Source of the DNA: Burkholderiales bacterium
Lineage (GTDB): Bacteria; Pseudomonadota; Gammaproteobacteria; Burkholderiales; SG8-39
Length of the DNA: 52,824 bases
Direction of reading: 5' to 3'
Assembly: GCA_014860445.1 (NCBI GenBank)
Contig: JACZJT010000064.1
Span: forward strand, 1-52,824
Part shown: positions 19,750-38,404 of the stretch, piece by piece
Position numbering within the stretch: position 1 is the stretch's first letter
Layout: each line of letters begins with the position of its first letter
Notes under the pieces: generated by a model
The model's database searches: none
Told to the model about the DNA's origin: nothing
Seen by the model: the letters and a program-made list of their open reading frames with translations, nothing else
Made by a program: the position numbers and the translations under genes

Positions 19750-19906
19750 CGCTGCGGCGCGCAGGTCGCGCAGAATGGCCATTGACGGGTTCCCGCGTGC
19801 GACCACTTGCGGATATACTATTTGGGCAGCAAGTAATGGCGCAGCACCCCCAGCATTCGGCCGGTCCGAGCGAAATGCGGAAGAATATCAATCAGAGGAG
19901 AAAACC

Positions 19907-20899: not shown

Positions 20900-20912
20900 G
20901 CCGGTCCCCCTG

Positions 20913-22540: not shown

Positions 22541-23355
22541 TGACGATAGAGCGTATCGGGGACCACATCCTGTGGAAGCGCCAGCCGCCCGCGGTCGTAG
22601 CAGCGCGGTTTGCGGGCTGGCTGGTGCTCGTCGCGGCGACCCTGTGGTGCTTCGAGATCATGACGCGCGATACGATCTGGTCCTTCGTGCTGGATGCACC
22701 GCGTCAGGGCGCAGATCTGGTCGGGCGCATGGTACCGCCGCGCTGGGGCTACATTCAGGAACTGTGGTGGCCGATGTGGGAGACTCTGAACATCGCCACG
22801 CTCGGCACGATGATCGCAATCGTCATGGCCTTGCCGGTCGCGTTCTGCGCGGCGCGCAACACCACGCCGAGCGTCCTGTTCGTGCGGCCGATCGCGCTGT
22901 TCATCATCGTGTCCTCGCGTTCGATCAATTCGCTGATCTGGGCGCTGCTGCTGGTTTCGATACTCGGGCCGGGGTCTTTTGCGGGAATCATTGCGATCGG
23001 GCTGCGCTCGATCGGCTTCCTCGCGAAGCTGATCTACGAAGCAATCGAGGAAATCGACGCCAGCCAGGTCGAGGCGATCACCGCGACCGGCGCGAGTGGT
23101 GCGCAAACCCTGGTCTACGGCATCTGGCCGCAGATCCTGCCTGCGTTTGCGGGCGTATGCGTGTTCCGCTGGGACATCAACATCCGGGAATCCACGGTAC
23201 TGGGCCTGGTGGGCGCAGGCGGAATCGGCCTGAACCTGCAGGCCTCGCTCAACGTGCTGGCCTGGCCGCAGGTGACACTGATATTCATCGTCATTCTCGC
23301 GACAGTGGTGCTGAGCGAGTGGGTCTCGGCGCGCGTGCGCCACGCTTTCATCTGA
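22540..23355 (+). CDS. phnE: Phosphonate-type ABC transporter permease (second PhnE)
   Basis: A 271-residue permease paralogous to the preceding gene. It has the same EAA loop (ASQVEAITATGASGAQTLVYG) and NIRESTVLGLVGAGGIG signature, and about six hydrophobic helices. The ATG overlaps the stop of the first permease by 1 bp. Two-permease phnCDEE operons are known and import phosphonates, phosphite or hypophosphite. No C-P lyase, phosphonatase or phosphite dehydrogenase gene is in the window, so the imported compound is open. Confidence 0.92.
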   Translation: MTIERIGDHILWKRQPPAVVAARFAGWLVLVAATLWCFEIMTRDTIWSFVLDAPRQGADLVGRMVPPRWGYIQELWWPMWETLNIATLGTMIAIVMALPVAFCAARNTTPSVLFVRPIALFIIVSSRSINSLIWALLLVSILGPGSFAGIIAIGLRSIGFLAKLIYEAIEEIDASQVEAITATGASGAQTLVYGIWPQILPAFAGVCVFRWDINIRESTVLGLVGAGGIGLNLQASLNVLAWPQVTLIFIVILATVVLSEWVSARVRHAFI

Positions 23356-24267: not shown

Positions 24268-25554
24268 TCAAACCGCCGGGCGGTATTCGGGAACGACGTA
24301 AGGCCCCTCGGGAATCACCGCTATATGCGTGTCGCCGCTGCGCTGCACGCTGGCGCGTATGGCATCCGGAACGGAATCGATTCTGCGCACGCCGGTGAGC
24401 CCCCAAGCTTCCGCGGCAAGCTTTTCGCTGTAAAGATGCACCGAACCTGACCGCATCGGCTTTAACTGCATCTGCGTCTGCCACTCGTCGATATCGGCGT
24501 GGCGTTTTGCGTTGATGTCCGCCATGAAACCTTCCGGTCCGAGTCCGAGCAGCCGCCGCTGCGCCTCCACGTACTCGGGCGAGCCCATGCCTTCGGCGCA
24601 CTCCGACACGATCAACAGGTCGCCACCCGGCGCGAGTATGTCGATCGGCGCCACCATGCCCTTGACCGTCTGGTAATAGGTCTTGTCCAGCGGATAGCCG
24701 GCCGCGCTGGTCACCACGGTGCCGAATTTGCGCTCAATGGGCACCACGGCGTAGCGGCGGATGAAATCGACGGCCAGCAGATGGCTTTGCACCACTTCGC
24801 CGAAGTTCACGAAGGACAGATTGCGATGCTCGTCGATCACCGTGTTCAGCGCCAGCGCATGGCCCAGCTTGCCCATGATTTCGAGCTGCTCCTCGTGCAG
24901 CGGGTTGCCCTCCAGAACGCAATTGGCTGCAAGCGGATGGCCCATGAAGCGCGCGCTGTGGAAAGTGGTGATCGTGTCCTTGTGCGCGACACCCGGCGCG
25001 ATCACCTTGCGCCCGCCCGAATATCCCGCCATGAAATGCGGCTCGACCAGGCCGGTCGCAATGCGCACATCGGCTTCGACGAAGCGCCGGTCCAGTTTCA
25101 CCGGCGTGCCGCGCGCTGTCGCGCCCAGGTCGACGTGATCGGCGTCGTTGCGCGCGTAGTGGTTCTCCACCCGCACGGTCTGCATCACCCAGGGATCGCC
25201 CACCAGTTCGGCCAGTTCATCTCCTTCATTGGGCCGATGCAAGCCCGTCGCGACCAGGATGGTGATACCCGATGCCGGAATGCCGGCATCCATGAGCGTA
25301 CGCACCAGCTGGGGCAGAAACAAGCCGTTGGGCACGGGACGGGTGATGTCGCACACCAGGATGCAGGCACTTTTCGCGCCACGTGCCTCTTCGGCCAGCG
25401 GACGGGCGCCCACCGGTGCGGCGAGCGCCGCGCGCACCGCGCCCACCGGGTCGGCAAGCAGAGGCATGTCGGGCTTTCTGATCACCGTGACGTCCCAGTC
25501 CGGATCCAGTTCCAGGCGGTGGATCCCTTTGCCGTATCTGAGGTCTATGTGCAT
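24268..25554 (-). CDS. larA: LarA-family nickel-pincer racemase (lactate racemase-like)
   Basis: A 428-residue LarA-family protein. Residues known from Lactobacillus LarA are kept with the same spacing: D and R in CDITRPVP (D72, R75), His in ATGLHRP (H108), His in EPHFMAGYSGGRK (H174) with Lys ten residues on (K184, site of the pincer cofactor thioamide linkage), and His sixteen residues after that in TTFHSARF (nickel ligand H200). The protein should thus be able to bind the nickel-pincer nucleotide and racemise or epimerise a 2-hydroxy acid. Many homologues act on substrates other than lactate, so the substrate is not fixed. larB lies upstream on the same strand beyond a palindromic repeat. 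larC and larE are not in the window. Confidence 0.85.
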   Translation of the reverse strand: MHIDLRYGKGIHRLELDPDWDVTVIRKPDMPLLADPVGAVRAALAAPVGARPLAEEARGAKSACILVCDITRPVPNGLFLPQLVRTLMDAGIPASGITILVATGLHRPNEGDELAELVGDPWVMQTVRVENHYARNDADHVDLGATARGTPVKLDRRFVEADVRIATGLVEPHFMAGYSGGRKVIAPGVAHKDTITTFHSARFMGHPLAANCVLEGNPLHEEQLEIMGKLGHALALNTVIDEHRNLSFVNFGEVVQSHLLAVDFIRRYAVVPIERKFGTVVTSAAGYPLDKTYYQTVKGMVAPIDILAPGGDLLIVSECAEGMGSPEYVEAQRRLLGLGPEGFMADINAKRHADIDEWQTQMQLKPMRSGSVHLYSEKLAAEAWGLTGVRRIDSVPDAIRASVQRSGDTHIAVIPEGPYVVPEYRPAV

Positions 25555-25581
25555 TTGCTCTCCTCCTGCAACGCCAATTAT

Positions 25582-25665
25582 GTCATTCCGAGCGTAGCGA
25601 GGAATCTGCTTTCTTCGCTAAAAAAAACAAAAAGCAGATTCCTCGGCCTTTGGCCTCGGAATGAC
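25582..25665. repeat. 84-bp palindromic repeat between larB and larA
   Basis: GTCATTCCGAG at 25582-25592 opens an imperfect palindrome that closes with CTCGGAATGAC at 25655-25665. Inside, CGAGGAATCTGCTTT pairs with AAGCAGATTCCTCG around an A-rich loop. A T-rich stretch follows on the plus side. Palindromes beginning GTCATTCCGAG are a recurrent dispersed repeat in many bacterial genomes. Here it fills most of the 134-bp larB-larA gap and could attenuate or punctuate the transcript. Confidence 0.85.
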
Positions 25666-25687
25666 AAGTTTTTTGAATTTCTACAAC

Positions 25688-26356
25688 TCACGCGGGCGGT
25701 CCAATGACGTGCAACATACGCAGTGCAACGCAGGCGGCGCCGTAGCCGTTGTCGATATTGACCACCGCCAGTCCCGGCGCGCAGCTCGCGAGCATCGCGT
25801 CCAGCGCAACGCGTCCGCCGCTGGCAACCCCGTAACCCACCGATGTCGGCAAGCCGATCACGCAGGCGCGCACCAGTCCGCCCACCACGCTGAGCAATGC
25901 GGCATCCATGCCGGCGACGACGATCAGCACGGGGTAACGACGGATTTCCTCCAGGCGCTCGGTCAAACGCCACAAGCCGGCAACGCCGATATCGTGAAAT
26001 TCTGCGGCCGGCTGGCCGTACCAGGCCAGCGTGCGCTGCGCCTCGCGCGCCACGGGCAGGTCCGAGGTGCCGGCGGAGAGTATGGCGACACGGGGTTCGC
26101 CGGGGCCCGCCGGCGACGCACCGAGAAAAGCGGTGCACGAGAGCGCGTCGTAGTCGAGCACTGCCAGGGCATCCGCGGACAATGCATTCAGCTTGTCGGC
26201 CGCGAGGCGCGTCAACAGCAGCCGCGCATTGCGCGAGCGCGCATCGGCGAGAATCGCTTCGATCTGGCTCGCGCTCTTGCCTGCGCAGAATATCGCCTCG
26301 TCCAAGCCGACGCGATCGCCGCGGCCTGCATCGGGACGCACCTCTGGAACGTTCAT
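25688..26356 (-). CDS. larB: LarB, pyridinium-3,5-bisthiocarboxylic acid mononucleotide synthesis protein
   Basis: A 222-residue LarB homologue with the AIR-carboxylase (PurE)-like fold in its second half: AILSAGTSDLPVAREAQ (about residues 92-108), DIGVAGLWRL, VVAGMDAALLSVVGGL and GLPTSVGYG. LarB carboxylates and hydrolyses nicotinic acid adenine dinucleotide in the first step of nickel-pincer cofactor assembly. The ATG at 26356 is preferred over a TTG two codons upstream. It precedes larA on the minus strand. LarE (sulfur donor) and LarC (nickel insertion) must be encoded elsewhere for a complete pathway. Confidence 0.88.
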   Translation of the reverse strand: MNVPEVRPDAGRGDRVGLDEAIFCAGKSASQIEAILADARSRNARLLLTRLAADKLNALSADALAVLDYDALSCTAFLGASPAGPGEPRVAILSAGTSDLPVAREAQRTLAWYGQPAAEFHDIGVAGLWRLTERLEEIRRYPVLIVVAGMDAALLSVVGGLVRACVIGLPTSVGYGVASGGRVALDAMLASCAPGLAVVNIDNGYGAACVALRMLHVIGPPA

Positions 26357-26771
26357 TGCCAAGGGCCAAGAATTCTCGTCATAAATTGCTTCCTATTCCA
26401 GCGAAGCCGGCGCGCGAACTTGTCGACGAAACGCAAGGCTTCGATTTTATCACCGCCTCCTCGACCCGCACCGGCGCGACGATTAAAAGCGTTTCAAAAA
26501 ACAAAGAATCCACGATTACATTGTGTGTATGGAACCGAACATAGCGCGACAAGAACAATAATTTGCTTGTCTTACATGCGTTCTTAGATAAGAATCCTGC
26601 CGCCACTATGCTAATGGTAGTCAGTAGCAATCGGATCTGCGGCATGCGGGTGGATCAGTAGCGGTCATGAGTCGGTCGATCTATCAGGCTAGTCGATATT
26701 TCGTTCTTTCCATGCTGAAGAGCACCGATCAAAGTGCTCGAAAAATATATTTATAAAAATGGGAGAAACAA
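26357..26771. other. 415-bp intergenic region upstream of the large lipoprotein gene
   Basis: No gene is evident and base composition is clearly lower in GC than the neighbours. A candidate promoter, TTGCTT (26563) and TAGATA (26585) 16 bp apart, points towards the lipoprotein gene. A GAGCAC/GTGCTC hairpin with an 8-nt loop (26721-26740) is followed by an AT-rich run. GGGAG a few bases before the ATG at 26772 serves as ribosome binding site. The minus-strand promoter for larB must also lie here but I cannot place it. Confidence 0.5.
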
Positions 26772-28796
26772 ATGAAATATTCGTCAGCCTGCAAGATTGC
26801 AGCGAGTTTGCTGCTGGCTGGGGTTCTGTCTGCCTGCGGCAGTAGTAACGATCCGGCGCCGGAAACCGCAGCGCCTGTTGTAGCTGCACCCACCACCTTC
26901 GCCGTATCCGGCACGGCCGCAACCGGCGCCGCATTGGATGGCGCGACCATCACCATCACCGGCAGCGATGGCAAGACCTACCCCGCCGCCGGCGAAGCGC
27001 CGATCGTTACGGGTACCGACGGTAGCTACACTATCACCCTCCCCCTCACAGCGAAGCCGCCATTCGTGGTCACGGCCGTAAGGAGCGACATCAGCCTGGT
27101 CAGCGTGATCGCGGAGGCGAAGGACAGCACGGCCAACGTTACCCCGGTCACCAATCTGATCGCCTCGCGTTTGTCGAGCTCGGGCGATCCGGCCAAGCTG
27201 GCCGCTGAGTTCCTGGCCGACCCGACCTTGCTCGACCTGGCGAAGATCACCGCCAGCGTCGCCGAGGTCGTCAAACTGATCCAACCGCTGATGGACGCGG
27301 TCGGCGACAGCACTAATCCGCTGAGCGGCAATATCCAGCTTGCCGTTACCAACGGCACGGGCGCCGACAAAATGCTCGATTCCCTGTCGATCAGCATCGT
27401 TCCTTCAAGCGATAAGACGGTCAATATCGCAGTGTCGGTGAAACAACAACAAGCTGAGGGCGCGCAACCCGTGGTTATCGCGTTCAGCGGCGGTACCGGC
27501 GCCACGGCGCCCGCAGCGACGCTCCCGACCGTAGTGGCCACCGACCTGGTTGACAGCGGCAATGCTGTCCTGATCGCCGACCTGCTCAAGCGCATGACCG
27601 CATGCTACGCACTGCCGCAAGCCGATCGCGTGGTTTCCGGTGGAACGGTCGTCGTCGACATCAAAGCAACCGCATGCAAGGACATGTTCGTTGGCAATGA
27701 CGCCGCAAACTACCTGAACAGCGGCGCGAAAGTGAGTTCCACTGGCGCCTTTGCCGGTCTGTTCGGCACGGGTACAGGCGCCACGTTCGATCTGGGCAGC
27801 TATGAGTTCACGCGCGGCAACGGTGATTGGGTGATCGCCTATCGCCTCACTGCCTCAGGCAACGTGAGCTACAACACCCTGGCAGTCAGGGTCGACACCG
27901 ACAAGAAGCTGCGCGTGATCGGCAACCAGTACAAATACAACGGCGGCGTGAATGCCTACCAGCAGGTTCGCAATTTCGTTGCCCAGCCGGCAGCGGACTA
28001 TTACAGCACCGGTTACAACCTGACCGTCAACAACACGGCCGACGTCGCCGATATCGTCAAGGTCGTCGTGACCTCGCCATCGGGCAAGACCTTGCTGTTG
28101 AAACGGAGTGCGGCCTCGTCCTATTTCCCCATAGTGAAATCCGATAACACAATTACCGGCACCAGCTTCGTGCGTCTGGCAAGACAATTTCTCGACACCG
28201 CCAACACCGGTGATCCGGCCCTGGCCGATCTCGGTACCTTCTTCTCCACGGATCGGTATGCCGCTGCAGACATTATTGCGATTCCGGCGCAAGCCAGGTG
28301 GAAGTTCGAATATTTTACGGACGAGACCACAATCGATGCGACGCAGTACTACACGACCCGCGCGCGCGCGATGACCATCGCCGAGTTGCAAACGCAGCCT
28401 TTGGCTAACCTCCCGGCTGCTGACATCGCCGAGGCGAAGTCAAGTATTGTCAGCAATACTGCCGGCACTACCTGGTGGCTCCCGGTCGATGGCACGGTAG
28501 ATGTTGACTGGGAAGTGCCCACGGGCGCTCTGGCTCCGACCAGCATTCAAGTGTACGGAAACTACGTGACCGGCCCAACGACGCGATCCGGTTTCAATGA
28601 CAAGACAGGTGTCAAGTCGACGGACCGCAAGGGTACTATTCCTTGCAGCAACGGCGGATCCGGTGATACGCATTGCGACAGCGCGGGTAATTATGCAACC
28701 TCCGACCACTTCAACGGCATCCATCTGTGGGCACAGGACGCGACGGGACGTGATTTCGCGCACTTCTACGCGTTCTACAAAATTACCTTGCCTTGA
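26772..28796 (+). CDS. Large lipoprotein of unknown function
   Basis: A 674-residue protein I do not recognise. The signal peptide ends in a clear lipobox LSAC (Cys at residue 22) followed by GSSNDPAP, so the mature protein is lipidated and, lacking Asp after Cys, likely sorted to the outer membrane. Residues about 40-120 (TFAVSGTAATGAALDGATITITGSDG) look like a carboxypeptidase-regulatory or Ig-like beta domain of the type common in secreted proteins. The remainder is rich in Thr, Ala and Val with Cys pairs near residues 277/297 and near the C-terminus (IPCSNGGSGDTHCDSAG). No catalytic motif is apparent. It has its own promoter region and a strong terminator, so it is a single-gene unit. A surface or adhesion-like role is only a guess. 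Confidence 0.8.
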   Translation: MKYSSACKIAASLLLAGVLSACGSSNDPAPETAAPVVAAPTTFAVSGTAATGAALDGATITITGSDGKTYPAAGEAPIVTGTDGSYTITLPLTAKPPFVVTAVRSDISLVSVIAEAKDSTANVTPVTNLIASRLSSSGDPAKLAAEFLADPTLLDLAKITASVAEVVKLIQPLMDAVGDSTNPLSGNIQLAVTNGTGADKMLDSLSISIVPSSDKTVNIAVSVKQQQAEGAQPVVIAFSGGTGATAPAATLPTVVATDLVDSGNAVLIADLLKRMTACYALPQADRVVSGGTVVVDIKATACKDMFVGNDAANYLNSGAKVSSTGAFAGLFGTGTGATFDLGSYEFTRGNGDWVIAYRLTASGNVSYNTLAVRVDTDKKLRVIGNQYKYNGGVNAYQQVRNFVAQPAADYYSTGYNLTVNNTADVADIVKVVVTSPSGKTLLLKRSAASSYFPIVKSDNTITGTSFVRLARQFLDTANTGDPALADLGTFFSTDRYAAADIIAIPAQARWKFEYFTDETTIDATQYYTTRARAMTIAELQTQPLANLPAADIAEAKSSIVSNTAGTTWWLPVDGTVDVDWEVPTGALAPTSIQVYGNYVTGPTTRSGFNDKTGVKSTDRKGTIPCSNGGSGDTHCDSAGNYATSDHFNGIHLWAQDATGRDFAHFYAFYKITLP

Positions 28797-28933: not shown

Positions 28934-31900
28934 TCAAGTACGCCGAGGAAGATCGAATTTCATGACCGTCGGGGCGTCGGCGCCGCAATACACGCTTGCA
29001 CTCACGCTCCAGCCGCGTTCTGTGGGATTGACGCCCACCATGGTGAAGCTGTCGCCTTCGGCTACAAGCTTGCGCTCATAGCGCATGTTCGCGCTACCGG
29101 CCGGCTCGAGCGGCAAAGCGCCGTCATCGACGAAGTCCTCCGCCTTGGCGTTGGCGAAAGGATAAGGCGCATAGAAGGGCGAAGCGACGATGCACAGCGC
29201 GCGCAGGCCGGAGACGCCCTCGCCTTCGAACGTAATCTTGCTGGCCATGGACAAATGCGGATCGCCGCAAAGGAACACCACGTTTTGGATGCGTTTTTCG
29301 GCGATAAACGAGAATAGCGCGCATAGCGAGTCTGGGAAACCATCCCAGCCGTCCGAGCGCGCCGCGTAGGCGTCGCCGCCGCGCGTCGCTTTCAGGAAAG
29401 GCACTACCACGCTGGGAGACAGCACGAACTTCGGCCGGTCGCCATAATTGCTGTCCCCTTGCTTGCGCTCCAGCCAGCACGTCAGCGCAGCGAACTGTTC
29501 ATCCGACATGATCTGCTTCCGATCCTTGCGGCCGGTGCGCGTATCGCAGGCGAAGAAGCCGAAGCCGCCGGCATCGAACGAATAAAAATAAGCGGGAGCT
29601 TTTCCCGTTGCGCCTACCGGGAGCGGCACGCCTGCTTCCTCGCAAAGTTCCGCTGCGTTGTTCGGCGAATGCTCCAACTGGTAAGCCTTGACCGCGCCCA
29701 GACCCCACTCCTTGTTGCGCTCGCGCTCTTCGTCGCACTCGTCTTGCGGGTGCCAGTCGTCGCACACCTCGTGGTCGTCCAGCATCATGTAGGTGGGCAG
29801 CTGCCGCAGCACCTCGCGTGCGTTCGGTGCGGTCCATACCTCTCGGTAGGCGTCGTAGAAGCGCGACCTGCGGTCCTTTGGATCGAACAGCCCGGCGGTG
29901 GCATCGGCGTAAATCTGATCACCGGCGAGCAACAGCAGCGAGGGCGCGTCCGGTCCCTTGGCATCGATCAAGTCGCGCAGCCGGCCGAAGCTCGCATCCG
30001 CCCGTTCGCGGTCCACCATCGCCGCCGGGTAGCGGCAGCTTCCGACGGCAAAGTTGATCGATGTACAGCTCGGATCGAGCCGGTCAAGCAGCTTCCGCGA
30101 CAATACGACTGAATCGCGGCGCGCCTCGTAGCCGAGGTCGCAGACGCGGCGTGCTTCCGCGCCTTGCTCCATCTTGCCTTCCCAGTGCACGCGTTCTTCC
30201 AATGTACTTTCGCCGTACCCGGCGCGAAGTTGGCACACGCCCTTCGCCAGTCCCGGTACCGATGACGGGTCTACACATACGTGATGGTGAGCTTTCTTCG
30301 CACCGACAGCTGCGCTTTCTTGCAGCAGCTGCACCGACGGCCTGTCGCTCTCCTTGGTATCGCGTTCGACCGAGGCGTAGGCGCCCACCATAAGAATCTC
30401 GAAATCCTGGTCAGGCAGCCCTGGGAGTGGAATGTCATTCACGCACAGGATGTCGGGCACCGGCCGCCGCGCCATTCGAAGATCCATCTTGAACGCGTAC
30501 CCCGGGACGGGAATGCCGTGCGTATCGAGTACGACCGCAATGACGAAATGTGCCGGCACATATTCGTCGTCCGTGCGGCACCAGATCCGCGCGATCCACT
30601 GGTCGCCCTTCTTGCACGTCCAACCAAGGACCGGGCCGATGAGAGGAGGCAACGCAAAGCGCGGGTGTCGATCCAGCGGCTTGGACGGGTCGAGCTTGGC
30701 AGCGGCATGGAGAAACTTGGACATGTCTCCATAAACATCGTACTCGGCGGTCTTGCCGATCAGTGGATCGAGGTGGCCGTAACCTGGGATCAACTTTCGA
30801 TCCCGGCGCTTGGCATCGGAGCCGAATATATCCACCAGCAGCCTTAACGAACGTTCCGTTGTTTTAGGATGGAATACATCGTTCTTTTCTCCGTGCATGA
30901 ACAGCACCGAAAAGCCGAAATGCTTCTTGATGTTTTCGTCCGTGACGTAGGTATTGCAGCCATCGTAGTCCGTTAGCCGCATGGAAAGCGCGTACTTTCC
31001 CGTCTGTTCGAAGGTCCTGATATTGGTGTGCCCGAGCATGTCGCCGAGCGCGTCGAGCATGCTTGGGTCGACGTTTTCATGTTGGAACAGGCGCCCGAAC
31101 ACGCCGGCCGAACGGTTGCAGTTGGCGATGTGGGTGTCTAACTCGCACGGAGGCCAAGGCTTGTGCGCAGAGAGCTCCGATTCCGGGTAGGGATAGGTGT
31201 ACAGGATACGATCGAGCAGCGCATCCTTCCAGTCTGCACTGCTGTCGACCGAGCTATAAAGGAAATCCGCCGCCATATAGCGGCGCATGGCCGCGGCCAT
31301 ATAACCACGGAACCGATTGCCTTCCGAGAGCGTGATCAGCGGCCCGACCTGCAACAGCACCGCGCTGCGCACCTGCTGGTCCAGCGTGCCAGCGAGGGCG
31401 GCACTGCAAAACATCGCCGAGCCGATGCAATGCGCGACCACGTCGAGCTTGTCGTGCTTGCTTGCCTTCAACACCTGTTGCACGATGGCCGGAATGTCGT
31501 TGCGCGCGACTTCGTCCAGCGTCCATTGATGGAAGGACGAGGGTACGGCGATGCTGGTGCGCAGTTCCGCCACCCAGACGTCGAAGCCGTTCTCCGCCAG
31601 ATGGCGCACCAGATTGCGCTCCAGTTTCGGGTGGCAGAATTGGATGCCGCCGGAACCGAAACCGTGGATTAGAAGCACGGGTAACGCGCCCGGCTTCGTC
31701 TCGTCCCGGTAGCGAGTCAATGGCAGGACCAGATTTCCTTTCGACCTGGACGAAGACACCGGAGCGGTTACGCTGTGATGCTCCATCTTCAATCCGTCCA
31801 GCGCGCCCGGCGTGCGCCGACGAATACGCTCGTCCTCCGTAAGATGCTTTTCGTACACGGGCAGGCGGAAACTCCAGAAGTGCACCTTGGCCACCACGCG

Positions 31901-34516
31901 GGCGAGAAACAACCCGATCGAAGCCAAATCCATGAATGCGCTCGGCTGGTCGAGATGGCGGACGATCTGCAACTGCGCGGCGAATCTGCGCACCATGTGC
32001 GCGAGGTCTATGCTCAGCTTGCCCACCTCGCGTGGAACGCCGCAGGGTTGGGTAACCGTCACCGTCAGTTCGGACAATTGACGCCAGGGATTGCCGTCGC
32101 TTACATACGCCAGCGTTTTCAAGCCGACGATGTGCGTATCCTTGGGAAGCAGGAGTGCACCTTTGTGCTTTAGGTCGCTCTGCAGCTGCATTTCGTAGCG
32201 CAGAAGGCGCACCTCGCCGACGTTCGATCCCAGATTGAAAAACAGCTTGGCGCTCGCCCAAAGCGACTTCCATGTTTTGAGCTTGAGCAGAGACGTCCAT
32301 CCTTCCCCCTTTCCTTCGCGTCTCCGCTGGAAGAAATCGCTGATTCCGCGCGCCCAGAGCCAGGTCCAGAATACCTTCAAGCTGCGGCCCCACGGTCCCG
32401 TCTCGTCGCGTTCCATCCAGTAGACGCTGCCTGTGACGGACGCAGGCTCGCCACCAATCGCGCTAAGGCTCGCTTTCTCCAGCTTTACCGTGTGCGGACC
32501 GGTGCGCAGGAATTCGCGGATATCACCGATCTCGGCGAACTCCACTTCGAGTTCCATGGCGACCGGTTTCCCCGGGGTCGGCAACAGGGCCAGGTCGCCT
32601 TTCATCTTCTCGGCGAAGCGAATCGCAGTGTTCGATTTTGCAGCCGGCTTGACTTGCGGCGTTTTTGGCAAGTCCGGAAGCTTGCCCGGAGTCCTTTTGT
32701 AATCTATCTCCCAGCCCCGGTCGACGGCATAGCGTGCAATCGCGCGCTCCGCGAGCGCGGTAATGGTAAGCAGCGGATTGATGCCCAACGCAGTCGGCAC
32801 GATTGCACCGTCCAGCACCAGCAGCCCTTGGTGAATGCGGGTTCGGTCCGAGGGCACCGTCGGGTCGTAGACGCGACCGATGTGATCCACCACGCCGGAT
32901 CCCCAGTCATCACCCATGGCGCAACCGCCCAGCGGGTGCACCGTCAGCAGCTTGCCCTGGGGTTTCTCCCCGGAAAGAATCCCGGAAACCTCCTCGGGCA
33001 AAGGCCGCCACATGGGATTGCGCAGATAGCTACCGCCCAGAGCTTCGGATTTACGCAGGATCTCGTCCTGACGCTGGTAGACCGCTTCGGCGCCGGCGTT
33101 ATTCCACTCCATCTTGATCGCACCGCTGCCGGCTGCGCTTTCCCAGCCATCCACCATTTCGAGACGGCCCCGCGCGCCGTCGTCACCCATGGCCGCAAAA
33201 ATCTGGGTACGCTCTATTAGGTCTGGATCCACTGCGACCGGATCGAGCCCGTCCGGATGGTGCGTGCTCCCATCGAAGCGTACGAGACCCACAGGCAGCG
33301 CGCCGGTGGTGACGATCTCCTCGAACACCCGGCGCAACGGCGAGGGGATACCCAATTCCTCGATCACGATGCGATCTGCGCGGGTACTACCTGTCTCTAT
33401 CACGCCGATGATCGTCGGCCCGACGTCGCGCTCTATTTCCGCGTCCTCCTCAGGGGCTGCGTTCACGCGGTCACGCTGCCCGTAGAGCACGCTGATCATG
33501 TCTCCATTTCCGGAGAACCGAGCACCGAGTTTTTCCGAAAAACGCAGACCCGGAGCACGCGAGCGCATCAGGATTTCAGTCGAACCCAGTGTGCCGGCCG
33601 CAAGCACGACATGGCGCGCGCGCACAAATCTGTCCTGATCGTCTTGCGGATGGCGCTGGCTGGTTTGACGGACGTGAACCTGCCAGGTTGGCGCAACGTT
33701 CTCCCCGCCAATCTTCTGCACATGCGTCACGGTGGCATTGACGAACAATCGTGCGCCGCAGCGTTTCGCCAGCGGCAGGTAATTCATCGCCAGCGTATTC
33801 TTCGCCCAGTTATTGCAGCCTGTGACGCAGTTGCCGGTGCGCAGACAGGTCTGTTGCATGACCCCCTGCGCGTTGGGTTCTGTTTTCCCATTTCTATCTT
33901 TTGCGACTTCGAACGTGACCGCCACCTTGGCCCGGCGCGCGCGCTCGCCGATCGTCTTTGCGAACGCTTCCAGTTGTTCGTACTTGGCCGCCCCTCCAAC
34001 CTCGGCCTCGACCACGCCGAGGATCTTCTCGGCGCGGTCGTAGCACGCTTCCAGCGTCGTCAGATCGCGCCGCAATTCCGCCGGCCAGGCCGGGTCCGCG
34101 AATACGTCCTTGGTGGCGCGCTCCGCCACGCTCGCATTGATCAGCGACCCACCCCCCAGGCCATTGCCGACCAGCACGCTGATGTCCGCGCCCAGGCGAA
34201 AATCGAACAGGCCGTCGGCCTGCCCTTTGGACTTCGGATCGTCGTAACGGCTGAAGCGCACGCAGCCGGGCAACTCGGAGAAACTGCCTGGGAAAGTACC
34301 GGGGACATACTCCTGCCCGCGTTCGAGCACGCAGACCCTGAGCCTCGTGCCGTTGTCGTCGATTGTCGCCTGCGCCAGCCGCGCCGCGGCGACCGCACCA
34401 CCGTAGCCGCTGCCCACCACGACGACGTCGAAATCGACTTCCTCGTTCGCGCTGCTATCGAGCGCGCTAAACAAATCCTCGACACCTTCTGCCAGCCATT
34501 GCGGTCGGTAGTTCAT
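28934..34516 (-). CDS. Three-domain fusion: GMC/cholesterol-oxidase-like flavoenzyme, alpha/beta hydrolase, PhoD-like metallophosphatase
   Basis: One uninterrupted 1860-residue protein. Residues 1-600 are a cholesterol-oxidase-like GMC flavoenzyme: FAD motif VVGSGYGG at 33-40, GNGLGGGSLINASV, HPLGGCAMG from H527, then TALGINPLLTITALAERA. Residues about 620-900 form a linker region of unknown fold. Residues about 930-1270 are an alpha/beta hydrolase: oxyanion-type HGFGSGG at 951, nucleophile elbow AHCIGS with cysteine C1030 where serine is usual, D1213 and H1248 in GYGHLDP. Residues about 1500-1860 are a PhoD-like phosphatase: GDQIYAD at 1532, DDHE at 1580-1583, GDPH with H1754. No signal peptide or clear membrane anchor is visible. 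The start at 34516 is set by AAGGAGG just upstream; an earlier in-frame ATG lies before that site. The gene follows a kinase and regulator on the same strand. The substrate is unknown; oxidation, acyl or ester chemistry and phosphoester cleavage of a lipid-like compound would fit. Confidence 0.9.
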   Translation of the reverse strand: MNYRPQWLAEGVEDLFSALDSSANEEVDFDVVVVGSGYGGAVAAARLAQATIDDNGTRLRVCVLERGQEYVPGTFPGSFSELPGCVRFSRYDDPKSKGQADGLFDFRLGADISVLVGNGLGGGSLINASVAERATKDVFADPAWPAELRRDLTTLEACYDRAEKILGVVEAEVGGAAKYEQLEAFAKTIGERARRAKVAVTFEVAKDRNGKTEPNAQGVMQQTCLRTGNCVTGCNNWAKNTLAMNYLPLAKRCGARLFVNATVTHVQKIGGENVAPTWQVHVRQTSQRHPQDDQDRFVRARHVVLAAGTLGSTEILMRSRAPGLRFSEKLGARFSGNGDMISVLYGQRDRVNAAPEEDAEIERDVGPTIIGVIETGSTRADRIVIEELGIPSPLRRVFEEIVTTGALPVGLVRFDGSTHHPDGLDPVAVDPDLIERTQIFAAMGDDGARGRLEMVDGWESAAGSGAIKMEWNNAGAEAVYQRQDEILRKSEALGGSYLRNPMWRPLPEEVSGILSGEKPQGKLLTVHPLGGCAMGDDWGSGVVDHIGRVYDPTVPSDRTRIHQGLLVLDGAIVPTALGINPLLTITALAERAIARYAVDRGWEIDYKRTPGKLPDLPKTPQVKPAAKSNTAIRFAEKMKGDLALLPTPGKPVAMELEVEFAEIGDIREFLRTGPHTVKLEKASLSAIGGEPASVTGSVYWMERDETGPWGRSLKVFWTWLWARGISDFFQRRREGKGEGWTSLLKLKTWKSLWASAKLFFNLGSNVGEVRLLRYEMQLQSDLKHKGALLLPKDTHIVGLKTLAYVSDGNPWRQLSELTVTVTQPCGVPREVGKLSIDLAHMVRRFAAQLQIVRHLDQPSAFMDLASIGLFLARVVAKVHFWSFRLPVYEKHLTEDERIRRRTPGALDGLKMEHHSVTAPVSSSRSKGNLVLPLTRYRDETKPGALPVLLIHGFGSGGIQFCHPKLERNLVRHLAENGFDVWVAELRTSIAVPSSFHQWTLDEVARNDIPAIVQQVLKASKHDKLDVVAHCIGSAMFCSAALAGTLDQQVRSAVLLQVGPLITLSEGNRFRGYMAAAMRRYMAADFLYSSVDSSADWKDALLDRILYTYPYPESELSAHKPWPPCELDTHIANCNRSAGVFGRLFQHENVDPSMLDALGDMLGHTNIRTFEQTGKYALSMRLTDYDGCNTYVTDENIKKHFGFSVLFMHGEKNDVFHPKTTERSLRLLVDIFGSDAKRRDRKLIPGYGHLDPLIGKTAEYDVYGDMSKFLHAAAKLDPSKPLDRHPRFALPPLIGPVLGWTCKKGDQWIARIWCRTDDEYVPAHFVIAVVLDTHGIPVPGYAFKMDLRMARRPVPDILCVNDIPLPGLPDQDFEILMVGAYASVERDTKESDRPSVQLLQESAAVGAKKAHHHVCVDPSSVPGLAKGVCQLRAGYGESTLEERVHWEGKMEQGAEARRVCDLGYEARRDSVVLSRKLLDRLDPSCTSINFAVGSCRYPAAMVDRERADASFGRLRDLIDAKGPDAPSLLLLAGDQIYADATAGLFDPKDRRSRFYDAYREVWTAPNAREVLRQLPTYMMLDDHEVCDDWHPQDECDEERERNKEWGLGAVKAYQLEHSPNNAAELCEEAGVPLPVGATGKAPAYFYSFDAGGFGFFACDTRTGRKDRKQIMSDEQFAALTCWLERKQGDSNYGDRPKFVLSPSVVVPFLKATRGGDAYAARSDGWDGFPDSLCALFSFIAEKRIQNVVFLCGDPHLSMASKITFEGEGVSGLRALCIVASPFYAPYPFANAKAEDFVDDGALPLEPAGSANMRYERKLVAEGDSFTMVGVNPTERGWSVSASVYCGADAPTVMKFDLPRRT

Positions 34517-34564: not shown

Positions 34565-36361
34565 TTATCGTGCCAGTACTGCGAGCATGGTCTGCTTGAG
34601 CTTGTCGGCGGACACCGGTTTGTGCAAAAAGGGCAGGCCGCTCTCCTGCGCCTCGCGCAGCCGCTCCGGTGCCGTGTCACCGCTGACCATGAGCGCCGGC
34701 ACATCGCCCAGGCGTTCGCGCAGCCGGCGTACGGTTTCAATGCCATTCTCGTGCTGCGGTAAGCGGAAATCGGCAACGATCAAGTCGATCTCGAGCGCGT
34801 GCTCATCGAGCAGGCGCTGCGCTTCGACATAACCGCTGCAGGCCCTGACCCGACAGCCCCAGGATTCGAGCAAAGCGCGCATGCCTACGCGCACGCTCGG
34901 CTCGTCGTCGATCACCAGGACCGTGACGCCAACGAGCGCAACCGCGTCCTCGCCCGCGGTTGCGGGCGGCGGATAGGGGAAGACGTGTCCACCTTCCGCC
35001 CTTGGCAGCGTGACGGAGAATGTCGAGCCGCGCCCGGATTGGCTCACCAGTTTGACTTTCAGCCCGAGCAGACGCGCCAGTCGCTTCACGATCGCCAGTC
35101 CCAACCCCAGTCCTTGCGTGCGGTCGCGCTCCGGATTGCCCACCTGGTAGAACTCTTCAAAAATGCGCTCGCGCTCGGAATTCGGAATGCCCGCTCCGGT
35201 GTCGCGCACCGCGATGCATACCGAGCTCTCGTCAACTTCCACGTCCAGCGCGACATCGCCCACGGCAGTGTATTTGAACGCGTTGTCCACCAGATTGCGC
35301 AGCATGCGCTCTAGCAGCACCGGGTCGGTTTCCATAATTGCATCGACCGGTGCGACGCGAAACGCCAATTTCTTCTCGCGCGCCACCGGCCGGTAATCGG
35401 CCTCGATACGCTCGATCAGTTCCTTCACGTTTACGCGCCGGATTTCCGGCGATACCGCACCCGCGTCGAGCTTGGAAACATCCAGCAGCGAATCCACCAG
35501 CGTGGACAGCGACGCGAGCGCTTGATTGATGTGGCCGGCGATCTCGCTGGTCGTGGCGTCCACGGCGCGCATGGTCAGCGTTGCACTGTACAGCGACAGG
35601 GCATGCAGCGGCTGGCGCAGATCATGGCTGGCCGCGGCGAGAAATTGCGACTTGGCGCGGTTCGCTGCTTCCGCGTGGTCGCGCGCGAGCATCACCTCCT
35701 GTCGCTCGCGCTCCAGCGCTTCGAGCAGCCTCTCGTTTTCGTAGCGAATCAGGAAGGATTCACGTACCACACGCTCGTTGTCGCGCACGAAAAGTACCTG
35801 GATCAAACCGAACAGGACGATCAATACCGCCACCGCCACGCTTTGCGTATCGCCCGTCATCACCCATAACAGCACAAGCGGCAGCAGGGCCGGCGCGACG
35901 TAAGCATAAAACACACGCGCATAGGCGGCCGCGGTGGATACACCGCCCGCGGTCCAGCACACAAGGATCATGGTGAGCAGCGCCCTTTCGACGTCGGGCA
36001 AACGTGAAAAAAACAAGGGCCCTGCCGACCCCGTAAACAGCCCGGCGCCGAACGCAAACCACATCATATGTCCCAGGGCGCGCTGTACGTCGACGGGTGG
36101 CTTGTTCAACTGGCGCAGTGCATATGCGCGGCGCACGAACAATAGCGCGACCAGCGCCACTGCCCACAAAACCACCTGATACACGGGCGCATGGCCGGAC
36201 ACTATGTACGCGAGTACCGTCGCGACGATCGCGATCACAAAGGGCGAGCGCGTCGCCTGTCGCGCGAGCAGGTTGAACTGCTGTCGTCGCAGGTGCGTAA
36301 ACCGGACCGGATCCTGCTCCACCGGCAGAAGCTCGGCTTTGCCTGAAATGGCCGCGCCCAA
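34565..36361 (-). CDS. Membrane-bound hybrid sensor histidine kinase
   Basis: A hybrid kinase of about 598 residues. The N-terminal 180 residues hold five or six hydrophobic helices without a large periplasmic loop, so it may sense the membrane or a membrane-borne signal. A short coiled coil (ENERLLEALERERQEVM) leads into HisKA with H246 in ASHDLRQPLHAL, then HATPase boxes NLVDNAFKY, DTGAGI and GLGLGLAIVKRL. The C-terminal receiver domain has D531 in IVADFRLPQ. No ATG lies in a suitable place; I chose the TTG at 36361, which follows GAGGCGG, over another TTG at 36379 that overlaps the regulator stop. It sits between the regulator and the fusion enzyme, 48 bp before the latter. Confidence 0.85.
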   Translation of the reverse strand: MGAAISGKAELLPVEQDPVRFTHLRRQQFNLLARQATRSPFVIAIVATVLAYIVSGHAPVYQVVLWAVALVALLFVRRAYALRQLNKPPVDVQRALGHMMWFAFGAGLFTGSAGPLFFSRLPDVERALLTMILVCWTAGGVSTAAAYARVFYAYVAPALLPLVLLWVMTGDTQSVAVAVLIVLFGLIQVLFVRDNERVVRESFLIRYENERLLEALERERQEVMLARDHAEAANRAKSQFLAAASHDLRQPLHALSLYSATLTMRAVDATTSEIAGHINQALASLSTLVDSLLDVSKLDAGAVSPEIRRVNVKELIERIEADYRPVAREKKLAFRVAPVDAIMETDPVLLERMLRNLVDNAFKYTAVGDVALDVEVDESSVCIAVRDTGAGIPNSERERIFEEFYQVGNPERDRTQGLGLGLAIVKRLARLLGLKVKLVSQSGRGSTFSVTLPRAEGGHVFPYPPPATAGEDAVALVGVTVLVIDDEPSVRVGMRALLESWGCRVRACSGYVEAQRLLDEHALEIDLIVADFRLPQHENGIETVRRLRERLGDVPALMVSGDTAPERLREAQESGLPFLHKPVSADKLKQTMLAVLAR

Positions 36362-36371
36362 GGCGACCGCC

Positions 36372-37022
36372 TCAGCCAAGGCGCAGCCCCAGCTTTGCGG
36401 CAGCGTAGACCGCTTCGGTGCGATTGTGGACGTCCAGCGCGAGAAATACCGCGGAAAGGTGGGCCTTGACCGTACCTTCTGACACATCCAGTTCGCGTGC
36501 GATGACTTTGTTCGGTTTGCCTTTGATTATGCAATGCAGCACGTCCATCTGCCGCGGCGTGAGACCCGGCAGCGCGCCCTTGCCCGGGTTCTGATCAGAC
36601 GACGACACGGATGCAGAGACCGGATGCGCCGCGTCGAGTACGGCGGACGGCAGGTACACGCCCTGTGCCAACACCAGCCGCAAGGCCTGGATCAGCACTT
36701 CGGGCGTCGACGACTTGGGGATGAAACCCATCGCGCCTGCGTCGATCGCCGCGCGCACGACGCGCGGATCCTCCTCGGCTGAGAGAACCACCAGCGGCGT
36801 GCCCGGAATCGCGGTTCGCAGCGCGGCGAGCGCGTCCATGCCGTTCAGGCCGGGCATCTTGAGATCGAGCAGCACCAGGTCATATGGTCGCGCGGCGACA
36901 AGATTCAGCGCATGGGCGCCGTCACTTGCCTCGTCCATTTCCAGATCGGCATCGAGGCTGCGCAGCAGGTAGCGCATACCTCCCCTAAGCAAGGGATGGT
37001 CGTCTATCAACAGAATATTCAT
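36372..37022 (-). CDS. NarL/LuxR-family response regulator
   Basis: A 216-residue two-component regulator. The receiver has the acidic pair D7-D8, phosphoacceptor D53 in LLDLKMPGLNG and conserved Lys in FIPKSS. A linker leads to a LuxR-type HTH from about residue 148: LTPRQMDVLHCIIKGKPNKVIARELDVSEGTVKAHLSAVF (the recognition helix near the end). It is the first gene of a minus-strand run with the hybrid kinase and the three-domain enzyme, so it most likely controls that enzyme or itself. An 18-bp palindrome 62-79 bp upstream of its start is a candidate binding site. Confidence 0.93.
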   Translation of the reverse strand: MNILLIDDHPLLRGGMRYLLRSLDADLEMDEASDGAHALNLVAARPYDLVLLDLKMPGLNGMDALAALRTAIPGTPLVVLSAEEDPRVVRAAIDAGAMGFIPKSSTPEVLIQALRLVLAQGVYLPSAVLDAAHPVSASVSSSDQNPGKGALPGLTPRQMDVLHCIIKGKPNKVIARELDVSEGTVKAHLSAVFLALDVHNRTEAVYAAAKLGLRLG

Positions 37023-37210: not shown

Positions 37211-38404
37211 ATGCAACTGCCACTCGAAGGAATCAAAGTGCTGGACCTGAGCCATGCGCTCGCCGGGCCGTTTTGCTCGACCATGCTTGCCGATTACGGC
37301 GCGCAGGTGATCAAGATCGAGCCGCCCGGCCTTGGCGATATCGCACGTGCCTGGGGCACGCCGCTGCCCGGCGGGGAGACGGATTACTTCATCAGTCTGC
37401 ATCGGAATAAACAGGGCATGGTGCTCGATCTGAAGAAACCCGAAGGCAAGGAAACCTTCCTGCGTCTGGTCGAGCGCTGCGACATCGTGCTGGAGAACTA
37501 CCGTGCCGGCGCGCTTTCGCGCCTGGGCCTGGACTATGAAACAGCGCGCAAACGCAATCCCGGCATTATCTACTGCTCGATTTCTGGTTTCGGTCAGGAC
37601 GGACCCTACCGCGACCGCCCTGCGCTGGACCTGATTCTGCAGGCCGAGAGCGGTATGATCAGCGTCACAGGAGAGGCCGGCGGACACGGCGCGCGCGCCG
37701 GCGTATCGATTGCGGACCTGACGGCGGGAATGAACGCCGCGTTCGGCGTCATGCTGGCGCTGCGCGCGAAGGAAAAGAGCGGCATCGGCCAGTCGATAGA
37801 CGTGTCGATGATGGAAGGCCAGATGGCGCTGCTCAGCACCATGCTGGGCAACTACTGCGCAACCGGCGAGATTCCCGCCCCCATGGGCACCGCCTACAAG
37901 GCGCTGCTGCCGTACCAGACGTTCCAGACCAAGACGCGCGACCTCGCGCTGGCCGTGGGCAGCGAAAAGCTGTGGAGAGCTTTCTGTCCTGTCATCGGCT
38001 GCCCGGAACTGGCAGACGATCCGCGTTTTCGCAGCAATGGGGATCGCAACCGCAATCGCGAAGCACTGGTCGAAACGCTGCAGCAGGCCTTCCTCACGCG
38101 CAGCTACGAGGAGTGGGAGGAACTTCTGACCAAGGCCGGGATTCCGGTGGGCGCAATCAACAACCTCGCGCAGGTGGTCGACCATCCGCAGGTAAAGGCG
38201 CGCGGCTCCATCGTCGAGATCGACCATCCGCGCGCGGGGAAGGTTCGGGTCGTGGGCGTTCCGGTGCGCCTGTCGGCGACGCCGGGCTCGATACGCGAGC
38301 CGGCACCGGCGCCGGGAGAACACACGGCGGCGGTGTTGCGGGACGTGCTCGGATTGGGCGCCGAAGAAATCGACGCGCTGCGCGTCGCGGGCGCGCTGGG
38401 CTGA
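37211..38404 (+). CDS. Family III (CaiB/BaiF) CoA-transferase
   Basis: A 397-residue formyl-CoA transferase-like enzyme that moves CoA between carboxylic acids. The N-terminus LEGIKVLDLSHALAGPFCS and IKIEPPGLGDIAR are family hallmarks. The nucleophilic aspartate is D169 in SIADLTAGMNAAFG, the same number as in formyl-CoA:oxalate CoA-transferase. The segment LALAVGSEKLWRAFC and the C-terminal VDHPQVKARG complete the pattern. It is a single gene, divergent from the regulator. No oxalyl-CoA decarboxylase, carnitine or aromatic degradation gene is adjacent, so the acid is not known. Confidence 0.93.
   Translation: MQLPLEGIKVLDLSHALAGPFCSTMLADYGAQVIKIEPPGLGDIARAWGTPLPGGETDYFISLHRNKQGMVLDLKKPEGKETFLRLVERCDIVLENYRAGALSRLGLDYETARKRNPGIIYCSISGFGQDGPYRDRPALDLILQAESGMISVTGEAGGHGARAGVSIADLTAGMNAAFGVMLALRAKEKSGIGQSIDVSMMEGQMALLSTMLGNYCATGEIPAPMGTAYKALLPYQTFQTKTRDLALAVGSEKLWRAFCPVIGCPELADDPRFRSNGDRNRNREALVETLQQAFLTRSYEEWEELLTKAGIPVGAINNLAQVVDHPQVKARGSIVEIDHPRAGKVRVVGVPVRLSATPGSIREPAPAPGEHTAAVLRDVLGLGAEEIDALRVAGALG

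What the first reader, a model, noticed from the sequence alone, without database searches (positions are those of the whole stretch)
28934..34516. Single 1860-residue protein joining a GMC flavoenzyme, an alpha/beta hydrolase and a PhoD-like phosphatase
The reading frame is open over 5.6 kb and each part keeps its own catalytic motifs: FAD motif at 33-40 and HPLGG at 527; HGFGSGG, C1030, D1213 and H1248; GDQIYAD at 1532, DDHE at 1580-1583 and GDPH at 1754. GMC-hydrolase fusions exist to my knowledge, but I do not recall adding a PhoD metallophosphatase. Three successive reactions on one lipid or sterol-like substrate would be a new biochemical unit.
Basis: partly seen in the sequence, partly recalled or inferred. 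Interest (0 to 1): 0.8.

Follow-up and report, generated by a model that had tools for sequence, protein, structure and literature searches.

The report
Three-enzyme fusion beside a sensor kinase
A single giant bacterial protein really does join an alcohol-oxidising flavoenzyme, a lipase-like enzyme and a phosphate-ester-cutting metalloenzyme; it belongs to a conserved, uncharacterised family, usually encoded next to a sensor kinase, and probably processes a lipid-like molecule.

Summary
Window 28934-34516, minus strand, is one open frame of 1860 residues with GMC, alpha/beta-hydrolase and PhoD domains, each above its Pfam cut-off. It is no artefact: 22 distinct fused genes were collected in Pseudomonadota, including Massilia, Janthinobacterium, Undibacterium and Ensifer. 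In a tree they lie on one side of a branch with two split relatives and one contig-broken copy.

(1) The GMC domain carries a cysteine loop: Cx2Cx2Cx3C (ferredoxin-like) in 20 of 22 fusions. In this protein and its nearest relative it is Cx5Cx3C, the spacing of the 3Fe-4S ligands in Burkholderia glucose dehydrogenase. That suggests a dehydrogenase, not an oxidase.
(2) The hydrolase nucleophile is Cys1030 (33 of 33); the catalytic-acid position is Asn1212 (32 of 33), not D1213.
(3) A hybrid kinase gene (nearest family NahK/ErcS) adjoins 17 of 19 testable fusions.

Best reading: a cytosolic, kinase-associated enzyme that cuts a phosphodiester and an acyl ester and oxidises an alcohol on a lipid-like substrate. 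Substrate and step order are inferred, not shown. My searches found no description of the architecture. It is a new variant of known enzyme kinds.

The parts
28934..34516 (-). fusion gene, 1860 aa: GMC - unassigned middle domain - alpha/beta hydrolase - beta domain - PhoD
   Evidence: translation without internal stop; Pfam; 22 distinct fused genes
32702..34444 (-). GMC flavoenzyme domain, residues about 25-605 (FAD motif 30-40, H527, N580)
   Evidence: Pfam GMC_oxred_N and _C; cholesterol oxidase nearest solved relative; G35, H527 and N580 in 33 of 33 rows
33815..33847 (-). cysteine loop C224-x5-C230-x3-C234 (residues 224-234), proposed Fe-S cluster site; most relatives have a fourth Cys at 227
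   Evidence: C224, C230, C234 in 33 of 33 rows; spacing equals Cys212/218/222 of B. cepacia FAD-GDH (PMC6719666, passages); relatives' four-Cys loop resembles ferredoxins and Fer4 profiles; loop modelled with low confidence
31742..32701 (-). middle domain, residues about 606-925, beta-rich, no known family
   Evidence: predicted strands; block-mean pLDDT 72-93 for residues about 632-711 and 65-95 for 772-881, 48-65 between; no convincing Pfam or PDB sequence match
30692..31741 (-). alpha/beta hydrolase domain, residues about 926-1275: nucleophile C1030, acid position N1212, H1248
   Evidence: Pfam; gastric lipase alignment; conservation
30077..30691 (-). residues about 1276-1480: beta domain and linker preceding the PhoD catalytic part
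   Evidence: six predicted strands at low to moderate confidence; split PhoD proteins have a similar N-terminal stretch before the match
28934..30076 (-). PhoD-like metallophosphoesterase domain, residues about 1481-1860 (C1494, D1533, Y1536, D1580, D1581, H1582, H1754)
   Evidence: Pfam; B. subtilis PhoD 2yeq; residues invariant in 17 of 17 fusions and 6 of 6 separate PhoD pieces
34565..36487 (-). hybrid histidine kinase (5 hydrophobic segments, HisKA, HATPase, receiver), directly upstream on the same strand, 48 bp gap
   Evidence: Pfam; hydropathy; best NCBIfam match NahK/ErcS NF041832, 348.4 bits against cut-off 400; homologue adjoining 17 of 19 testable fusions
36372..37022 (-). LuxR-type response regulator, upstream of the kinase
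   Evidence: Pfam; best NCBIfam match ErdR, 143.8 bits against 390; homologue within the fetched flank of 13 of 19 testable fusions

Best explanation
It is a cytosolic three-enzyme protein of a conserved, uncharacterised family, encoded next to (and probably expressed with) a NahK/ErcS-like hybrid kinase and an ErdR-like response regulator. Shown: the architecture, its conservation, purifying selection and the kinase neighbourhood. Inferred: the GMC part is an FAD dehydrogenase that oxidises a hydrophobic alcohol and hands electrons through an Fe-S cluster (3Fe-4S here, probably 4Fe-4S in most relatives) to a one-electron acceptor rather than to oxygen. The hydrolase part forms an acyl-thioester on Cys1030 with a Cys-His-Asn set and so hydrolyses or transfers an acyl group. 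The PhoD part is a Fe/Ca phosphodiesterase, possibly of phospholipase D type. The middle domain may hold the hydrophobic substrate (a guess). Together they would dismantle or remodel a lipid-like ester and phosphodiester and oxidise the freed alcohol.
For: Three domains above Pfam cut-offs. Active-site residues kept: H527, N580, C1030 and H1248 in 33 of 33 rows (22 fusions, 11 GMC-hydrolase chains). PhoD residues C1494, D1533, Y1536, D1580, D1581, H1582, D1752, H1754 in 17 of 17 fusions and 6 of 6 separate PhoD pieces; in all 22 fusions the same except H1754 in 21 (L102 misaligned there). Cys loop: four Cys in 20 of 22 fusions and 11 of 11 GMC-hydrolase chains, three Cys in window and L016; it resembles ferredoxins (best E 0.00017) and Fer4_6 (24.0 bits against cut-off 25); the three-Cys spacing equals the 3Fe-4S ligands of B. 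cepacia FAD-GDH, and GDH/FDH structures hold 9 of Foldseek ranks 13-24. Hydrolase nearest to gastric and lysosomal acid lipase. GMC-hydrolase gene followed directly by a PhoD gene in 5 loci (L023, L024, L085, L086, L089). The fused genes group together. Kinase homologue adjoining 17 of 19 testable fusions, against 1 of 9 outgroup loci, and there one gene away. No N-terminal hydrophobic segment or Tat pattern in the window protein.
Against: No substrate, product or activity is known. Described PhoD enzymes are extracytoplasmic and use Ca2+ (PMC4223295, passages), which fits a cytosolic protein poorly. Asn at the acid position could also mean a hydrolase that no longer turns over. The window protein lacks the fourth Cys of its relatives and its own loop matches no Pfam profile, Fer4 included. 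PhoD is not tied to the pair outside the fused group: 6 of 11 GMC-hydrolase chains have no PhoD gene in the fetched flank, and the Nitrosomonas PhoD gene of L027 has 9.6 kb upstream without a GMC or hydrolase relative. Regulator homology is weak guidance: in P. putida, loss of erdR did not affect ethanol use (PMC12997753, passage). The model of residues 925-1858 is poor (mean pLDDT 58.7).
Confidence: 0.45

Rival explanations
1. Steryl or wax-type ester pathway only: the hydrolase frees a sterol-like alcohol and the GMC part oxidises it; PhoD is attached but a separate activity (for example phosphate scavenging from the same lipid).
For: Nearest solved relatives are cholesterol oxidase and acid lipase/cholesteryl ester hydrolase. 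GMC-hydrolase chains without a PhoD neighbour exist (6 of 11).
Against: GMC scores 186 bits against the cholesterol oxidase cut-off of 850 and has a Cys loop that cholesterol oxidase lacks in the alignment. The nucleophile is Cys, not Ser. PhoD is in the same chain in 22 of the 24 full-length members of the fused group.
Confidence: 0.2
2. Polyester or oligoester pathway: the Cys hydrolase is a PHA-synthase- or depolymerase-like acyl enzyme and the GMC part oxidises the hydroxy-acid or glycol end.
For: Weak matches to PhaC profiles (TIGR01836 17.6 bits; also in two GMC-hydrolase chains). PhaZ and PhaC appear at ranks 35 and 44 of the Foldseek list.
Against: All far below the PhaC cut-offs (365.3 and 622.65 bits). 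The acid position is Asn in 32 of 33 rows, whereas PhaC uses Asp (recalled). No PHA gene among the window genes that I searched.
Confidence: 0.1
3. Signalling module: the fusion is the enzyme partner that tells the adjoining NahK/ErcS-like kinase about a metabolite, as proposed for the alcohol dehydrogenase YiaY/ErcA and its kinase.
For: Kinase homologue adjoins 17 of 19 testable fusions. For the ErcS-type kinase PP_2683, a review reports a modelled contact with the adjoining dehydrogenase YiaY (PMC12997753, passages).
Against: The kinase has its own hydrophobic, probably membrane, segments and scores below the NahK/ErcS cut-off. The two Ensifer fusions have no such kinase in the fetched flank.
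Confidence: 0.12
4. The fusion is an artefact of assembly or a pseudogene in decay.
For: None found.
Against: 22 distinct fused genes; dN well below dS in all five segments; no stops.
Confidence: 0.01

Closest known systems
Cholesterol oxidase type I (Streptomyces, PDB 1b4v; NCBIfam NF058674)
   Same: GMC fold, HPLGG and NP active-site motifs, top hit by sequence and structure
   Different: 186 bits against cut-off 850; no Cys loop in the alignment; no middle, hydrolase or PhoD domain
FAD glucose dehydrogenase of Burkholderia cepacia (6a2u, 8grj) and Gluconobacter fructose dehydrogenase (8jej, 7w2j)
   Same: GMC fold; Cx5Cx3C equals Cys212/218/222 that bind 3Fe-4S (PMC6719666, passages); 9 of Foldseek ranks 13-24
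   Different: B. cepacia GDH works with a hitchhiker and a triheme subunit (PMC6719666, passages); neither lies beside the window gene. Sequence matches are short, C-terminal ones
Gastric and lysosomal acid lipases (1hlg, 1k8q, 6v7n)
   Same: nearest hydrolase relatives by fold and sequence
   Different: Ser of the nucleophile elbow replaced by Cys1030; acid position is Asn1212
PhoD phosphodiesterase (B. subtilis 2yeq; S. chromofuscus phospholipase D)
   Same: Pfam PF09423 above cut-off; Cys, Tyr, Asp and His of the metal-site motifs kept
   Different: described as extracytoplasmic; here no export signal seen and C-terminal part of a fusion
GMC-hydrolase proteins of about 1140-1540 aa without PhoD in the chain (e.g. 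Nitrosomonas L023; similar proteins on Leptospira and Rhizobium plasmids)
   Same: same GMC and hydrolase parts, four-Cys loop and Cys nucleophile in 11 of 11
   Different: no PhoD in the chain; 5 of 11 have a PhoD gene next door; the middle domain is shorter in several

Membership tests
Cholesterol oxidase (NF058674) | score above curated cut-off 850 | tested here: not met
   186 bits
Cholesterol oxidase | catalytic His and Asn of the GMC active site | tested here: met
   H527 and N580 in 33 of 33 rows, aligned to 4u2l; that these are the catalytic residues is recalled
Cholesterol oxidase | O2 as electron acceptor | not testable with these tools
   Cys loop argues against
3Fe-4S GMC dehydrogenases (BcGDH type) | three Cys with x5, x3 spacing | tested here: met
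   C224/C230/C234; PMC6719666
3Fe-4S GMC dehydrogenases (BcGDH type) | hitchhiker and cytochrome subunit genes adjacent | tested here: not met
   adjoining genes are kinase and regulator and a 674-aa protein without NCBIfam or Pfam match
3Fe-4S GMC dehydrogenases (BcGDH type) | bound cluster | not testable with these tools
   needs EPR or a structure
4Fe-4S ferredoxin-type site (relatives' loop) | score above a Fer4 gathering cut-off | tested here: not met
   best Fer4_6 24.0 and 21.8 bits against 25 for two relatives' loops; none for the window's loop
PhoD (PF09423) | score above gathering cut-off 27 | tested here: met
   66.3 bits
PhoD | metal-site Cys, Tyr, Asp, His | tested here: met
   17 of 17 fusions and 6 of 6 separate pieces; equivalence of Cys and Tyr to the B. 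subtilis ligands is assigned from motif position
PhoD (B. subtilis type) | export signal | tested here: not met
   no N-terminal hydrophobic segment or Tat pattern in the window protein by a simple hydropathy and pattern test
Acid lipase family | Ser-His-Asp triad | tested here: not met
   Cys1030, Asn1212, His1248
PHA synthase | score above curated cut-off | tested here: not met
   17.6 against 365.3 bits
NahK/ErcS kinase (NF041832), for the neighbour | score above curated cut-off 400 | tested here: not met
   348.4 bits, best match

The most novel reading that the evidence does not exclude
The fusion is a self-contained lipid-dismantling enzyme whose turnover is read by its own NahK/ErcS-like kinase: an Fe-S GMC dehydrogenase, a Cys-His-Asn acyl hydrolase/transferase and a cytosolic PhoD phosphodiesterase act on one lipid-like molecule, and the redox state or product sets the kinase. 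That would be a new enzyme-sensor unit and a new redox type within the GMC superfamily (a ferredoxin-like 4Fe-4S site in the dehydrogenase itself).
Probability: 0.13. Interest if true: 0.75.

Novelty: new variant of a known kind. Interest (0 to 1): 0.5.

Why it matters
If the three activities work together, one polypeptide would carry a pathway step that elsewhere needs several proteins, and the conserved kinase offers a handle on the inducing substrate. Independently, the Cx2Cx2Cx3C loop suggests that a group of bacterial GMC proteins filed near cholesterol oxidase are Fe-S dehydrogenases, not oxidases; that is directly testable and would change annotations. The Cys/Asn replacement in the hydrolase and a cytosolic PhoD are further testable departures.

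Tried and rejected
Assembly artefact or frameshift: rejected. Anti-phage defence: no PADLOC match at E 0.01. Plasmids: 7 of 82 matching records cover at least 80% of the query, all 7 Ensifer; this says little about function. Separate PhoD relatives (L027-L045): no GMC or hydrolase relative in the fetched DNA, so context gave no clue there. The Glu of the cholesterol oxidase active site (recalled): the region around 386-387 varies between E, Q and D and I could not settle the equivalence. Literature on the architecture: 20 of 136 papers listed; 5 of 5; 0 papers; none seen to describe it. Literature on Fe-S GMC enzymes: 20 of 277 listed; 0; 12 of 12; 15 of 372 listed; the listings showed the B. 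cepacia glucose dehydrogenase and related work, none that I saw to describe a 4Fe-4S GMC enzyme. I saw only listings and starts of abstracts, except for the papers named by passage. PMC8097209 (find) held none of GMC, glucose dehydrogenase or fructose dehydrogenase. PMC13066512 (passages) only lists Leptospira GMC and cholesterol oxidase genes in expression tables.

Full report
What is there. The gene lies on the minus strand, 34516 to 28934, 1860 codons with no internal stop; the plus strand of the same stretch has stops in the frame translated. Pfam finds GMC_oxred_N and _C, Abhydrolase_1 and PhoD, all above curated cut-offs, in that order. G+C at codon position 3 is alike in all parts (0.722-0.766), so nothing points to a recent chimera. 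The nearest relative, a 5329-base contig (L005 and L016 gave identical matches and I count them once), is 71% identical over residues 1-1770 and keeps the frame open to the contig end. Between the two, dN is 0.153-0.311 and dS 0.684-1.089 in five segments, dN/dS 0.19-0.30.

Family and distribution. A scan of GTDB contigs gave 35 loci: 8 hold a fused gene (L016-L022 and L026; among them Massilia rubra, Janthinobacterium, Undibacterium and two Gammaproteobacteria), 2 Nitrosomonas loci hold the same parts as two adjoining genes (L023, L024), and the rest show a PhoD match only. Of these, L025 is a contig end that the surveys give as genome G029. Ensifer plasmids carry the fusion too; in the one record with annotation at hand it is called 'alpha/beta fold hydrolase'. 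Genome surveys, judged by all three parts in one open frame and overlapping in membership: 2 of 60 relatives, 4 of 98 genomes of the own family plus one (G029) probably broken across contigs, 7 of 399 of the order, 4 of 369 of the class (G826 and the hydrolase part of G941 by motif), 1 of 398 of the phylum, the window's own. So it is rare and patchy. I collected 22 distinct fused genes (17, 5 more). None was seen outside Pseudomonadota, but the contig scan uses exact peptide patterns and the surveys stay within the phylum.

Grouping. A quick maximum-likelihood tree on GMC and hydrolase columns (34 rows) puts the 22 fusions, two split members (L085, L086) and the contig-broken L094 on one side of a branch with SH-aLRT 100 and length 1.02, apart from nine other rows. 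The label 'fused' needs 4 changes (at least 3 by starred branches), because L085, L086 and the partial L094 lie inside. The simplest reading is one fusion and two later splits; the root was set by me on L087, ten inner forks are open and L082 is a long row. Outside that group, L023, L024 and L089 have a separate PhoD gene directly after the GMC-hydrolase gene, whereas six rows have none. A third Nitrosomonas locus, L027, has PhoD without a GMC-hydrolase relative in 9.6 kb upstream. So the link between the parts is real but not universal.

GMC part. Cholesterol oxidase is the closest solved structure by sequence and by fold, but the score is far below the cholesterol oxidase cut-off. A loop at 224-234 has Cys at 224, 230 and 234 in 33 of 33 rows (22 fusions, 11 GMC-hydrolase chains), with a fourth at 227 in 20 of 22 and 11 of 11; only the window protein (Thr) and L016 (Val) lack it. 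A profile of the four-Cys loop finds ferredoxins (best E 0.00017), and single loops score just below the Fer4_6 cut-off; the window's own loop matches no Pfam family. The three-Cys spacing is that of Cys212, Cys218, Cys222 holding 3Fe-4S in B. cepacia FAD glucose dehydrogenase (PMC6719666, passages). Cholesterol oxidase has no Cys there in the alignment. Seven GMC-only proteins (L002 from the window's own genome, L010-L013 and L015 from the same genus, L014 from the same family) carry the four-Cys motif as well, so this feature is wider than the fusion. The loop is modelled with low confidence (block pLDDT about 50). I infer an Fe-S flavo-dehydrogenase.

Hydrolase part. The best structural matches are gastric lipase and lysosomal acid lipase/cholesteryl ester hydrolase. 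The alignment sets the Ser of the lipase's GHSQG against Cys1030; a second stretch that would set the lipase's NHLD against GH1248LD is not significant by itself. Cys1030 and His1248 are invariant in 33 of 33 rows. The position three after the strand-end Gly, where alpha/beta hydrolases usually have Asp (recalled), is Asn1212 in 32 of 33 rows (Ser in L079); position 1213 is Asp in 8 of 22 fusions. So the likely set is Cys-His-Asn; it may hydrolyse or transfer acyl groups, or be impaired.

PhoD part. Cys1494, Asp1533, Tyr1536, Asp1580, Asp1581, His1582, Asp1752 and His1754 are invariant in 17 of 17 fusions and 6 of 6 separate PhoD pieces; over all 22 fusions only His1754 of L102 differs, where the alignment has slipped. 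B. subtilis PhoD has a Fe3+ with Tyr and Cys ligands and two Ca2+, and S. chromofuscus phospholipase D belongs to the same Cys subfamily (PMC4223295, passages); I assign the equivalent residues from motif position. Those enzymes are extracytoplasmic; here a simple hydropathy and Tat-pattern test saw no export signal in the window protein. One extended N-terminus (L080, start uncertain) matched the loose Tat pattern. The nine split and solo PhoD N-termini printed had no hydrophobic segment.

Middle domain. Residues about 606-925 are predicted as a beta-rich domain ending in a long helix, in a model of mean pLDDT 76.5, with no convincing Pfam or PDB sequence relative. The second model, of residues 925-1858, is weaker (mean pLDDT 58.7, pTM 0.41), so no claim on domain packing is made.

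Neighbourhood. A hybrid histidine kinase gene ends 48 bp before the fusion's start codon on the same strand, preceded by a LuxR-type regulator. A homologue of this kinase adjoins 17 of the 19 fusions with enough flank; the two without are the Ensifer plasmids, and L016, L017 and L102 begin at contig edges. It lies upstream on the same strand except in L082, where it is divergent. Of the other members of the group, L085 and L094 have it and L086 does not. Of nine outgroup loci only L091 has it, divergent and one gene away. A regulator homologue was found near 13 of the 19. L086 and Ensifer L051 have instead a divergent large protein matching a kinase/cyclase profile below cut-off. The kinase is nearest NahK/ErcS and the regulator nearest ErdR, both below cut-off. 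In Pseudomonas, relatives of these are tied to biofilm dispersal (NahK), acetate use and ethanol-induced swarming (ErdR), and lie in or act on alcohol-oxidation clusters, although loss of erdR in P. putida did not affect ethanol use (PMC12997753, passages; PMC8402216, abstract). That fits alcohol oxidation but does not prove it.

Verdict. The 'three successive reactions' idea is plausible but unproven, and the GMC chemistry is more likely dehydrogenation through an Fe-S cluster than oxidation with O2.

Noticed in passing
L002, L010-L015 (GMC-only genes): Seven GMC-only proteins, one in the window's own genome (L002), carry the same CxxCGxCxxGC ferredoxin-like loop; a broader Fe-S GMC group may exist.
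   Followed up: partly
window 34565-37022: NahK/ErcS-like hybrid kinase and ErdR-like regulator upstream of the fusion.
   Followed up: yes
window 19775-23355: Phosphonate-type ABC transporter: substrate-binding protein and two PhnE permeases with an ABC ATPase between; about 5.6 kb beyond the 3' end of the fusion, link unknown.
   Followed up: no
window 24268-26362: LarA-like nickel-dependent racemase (333 bits, below cut-off 460) and LarB cofactor gene (above cut-off) on the minus strand.
   Followed up: no
window 26772-28796: 674-aa protein with a lipoprotein-like N-terminus (by eye), no NCBIfam or Pfam match, convergent with the fusion.
   Followed up: partly
window 37211-38404 and 38969-41287: CoA-transferase family III gene, and an adenylate/guanylate cyclase with GAF and PAS domains.
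   Followed up: no
L086:12886-16962; L051:5467-9477: Large proteins divergent from the fusion where the kinase is missing, matching a kinase/cyclase profile below cut-off; the L086 one has AAA and cyclase domains.
   Followed up: partly
L028-L044: A PhoD-like protein group mostly of 424-523 aa in Pseudomonas, Rheinheimera, Photobacterium and others; the four N-termini looked at have no hydrophobic export signal, so it may be a cytosolic PhoD subfamily.
   Followed up: partly
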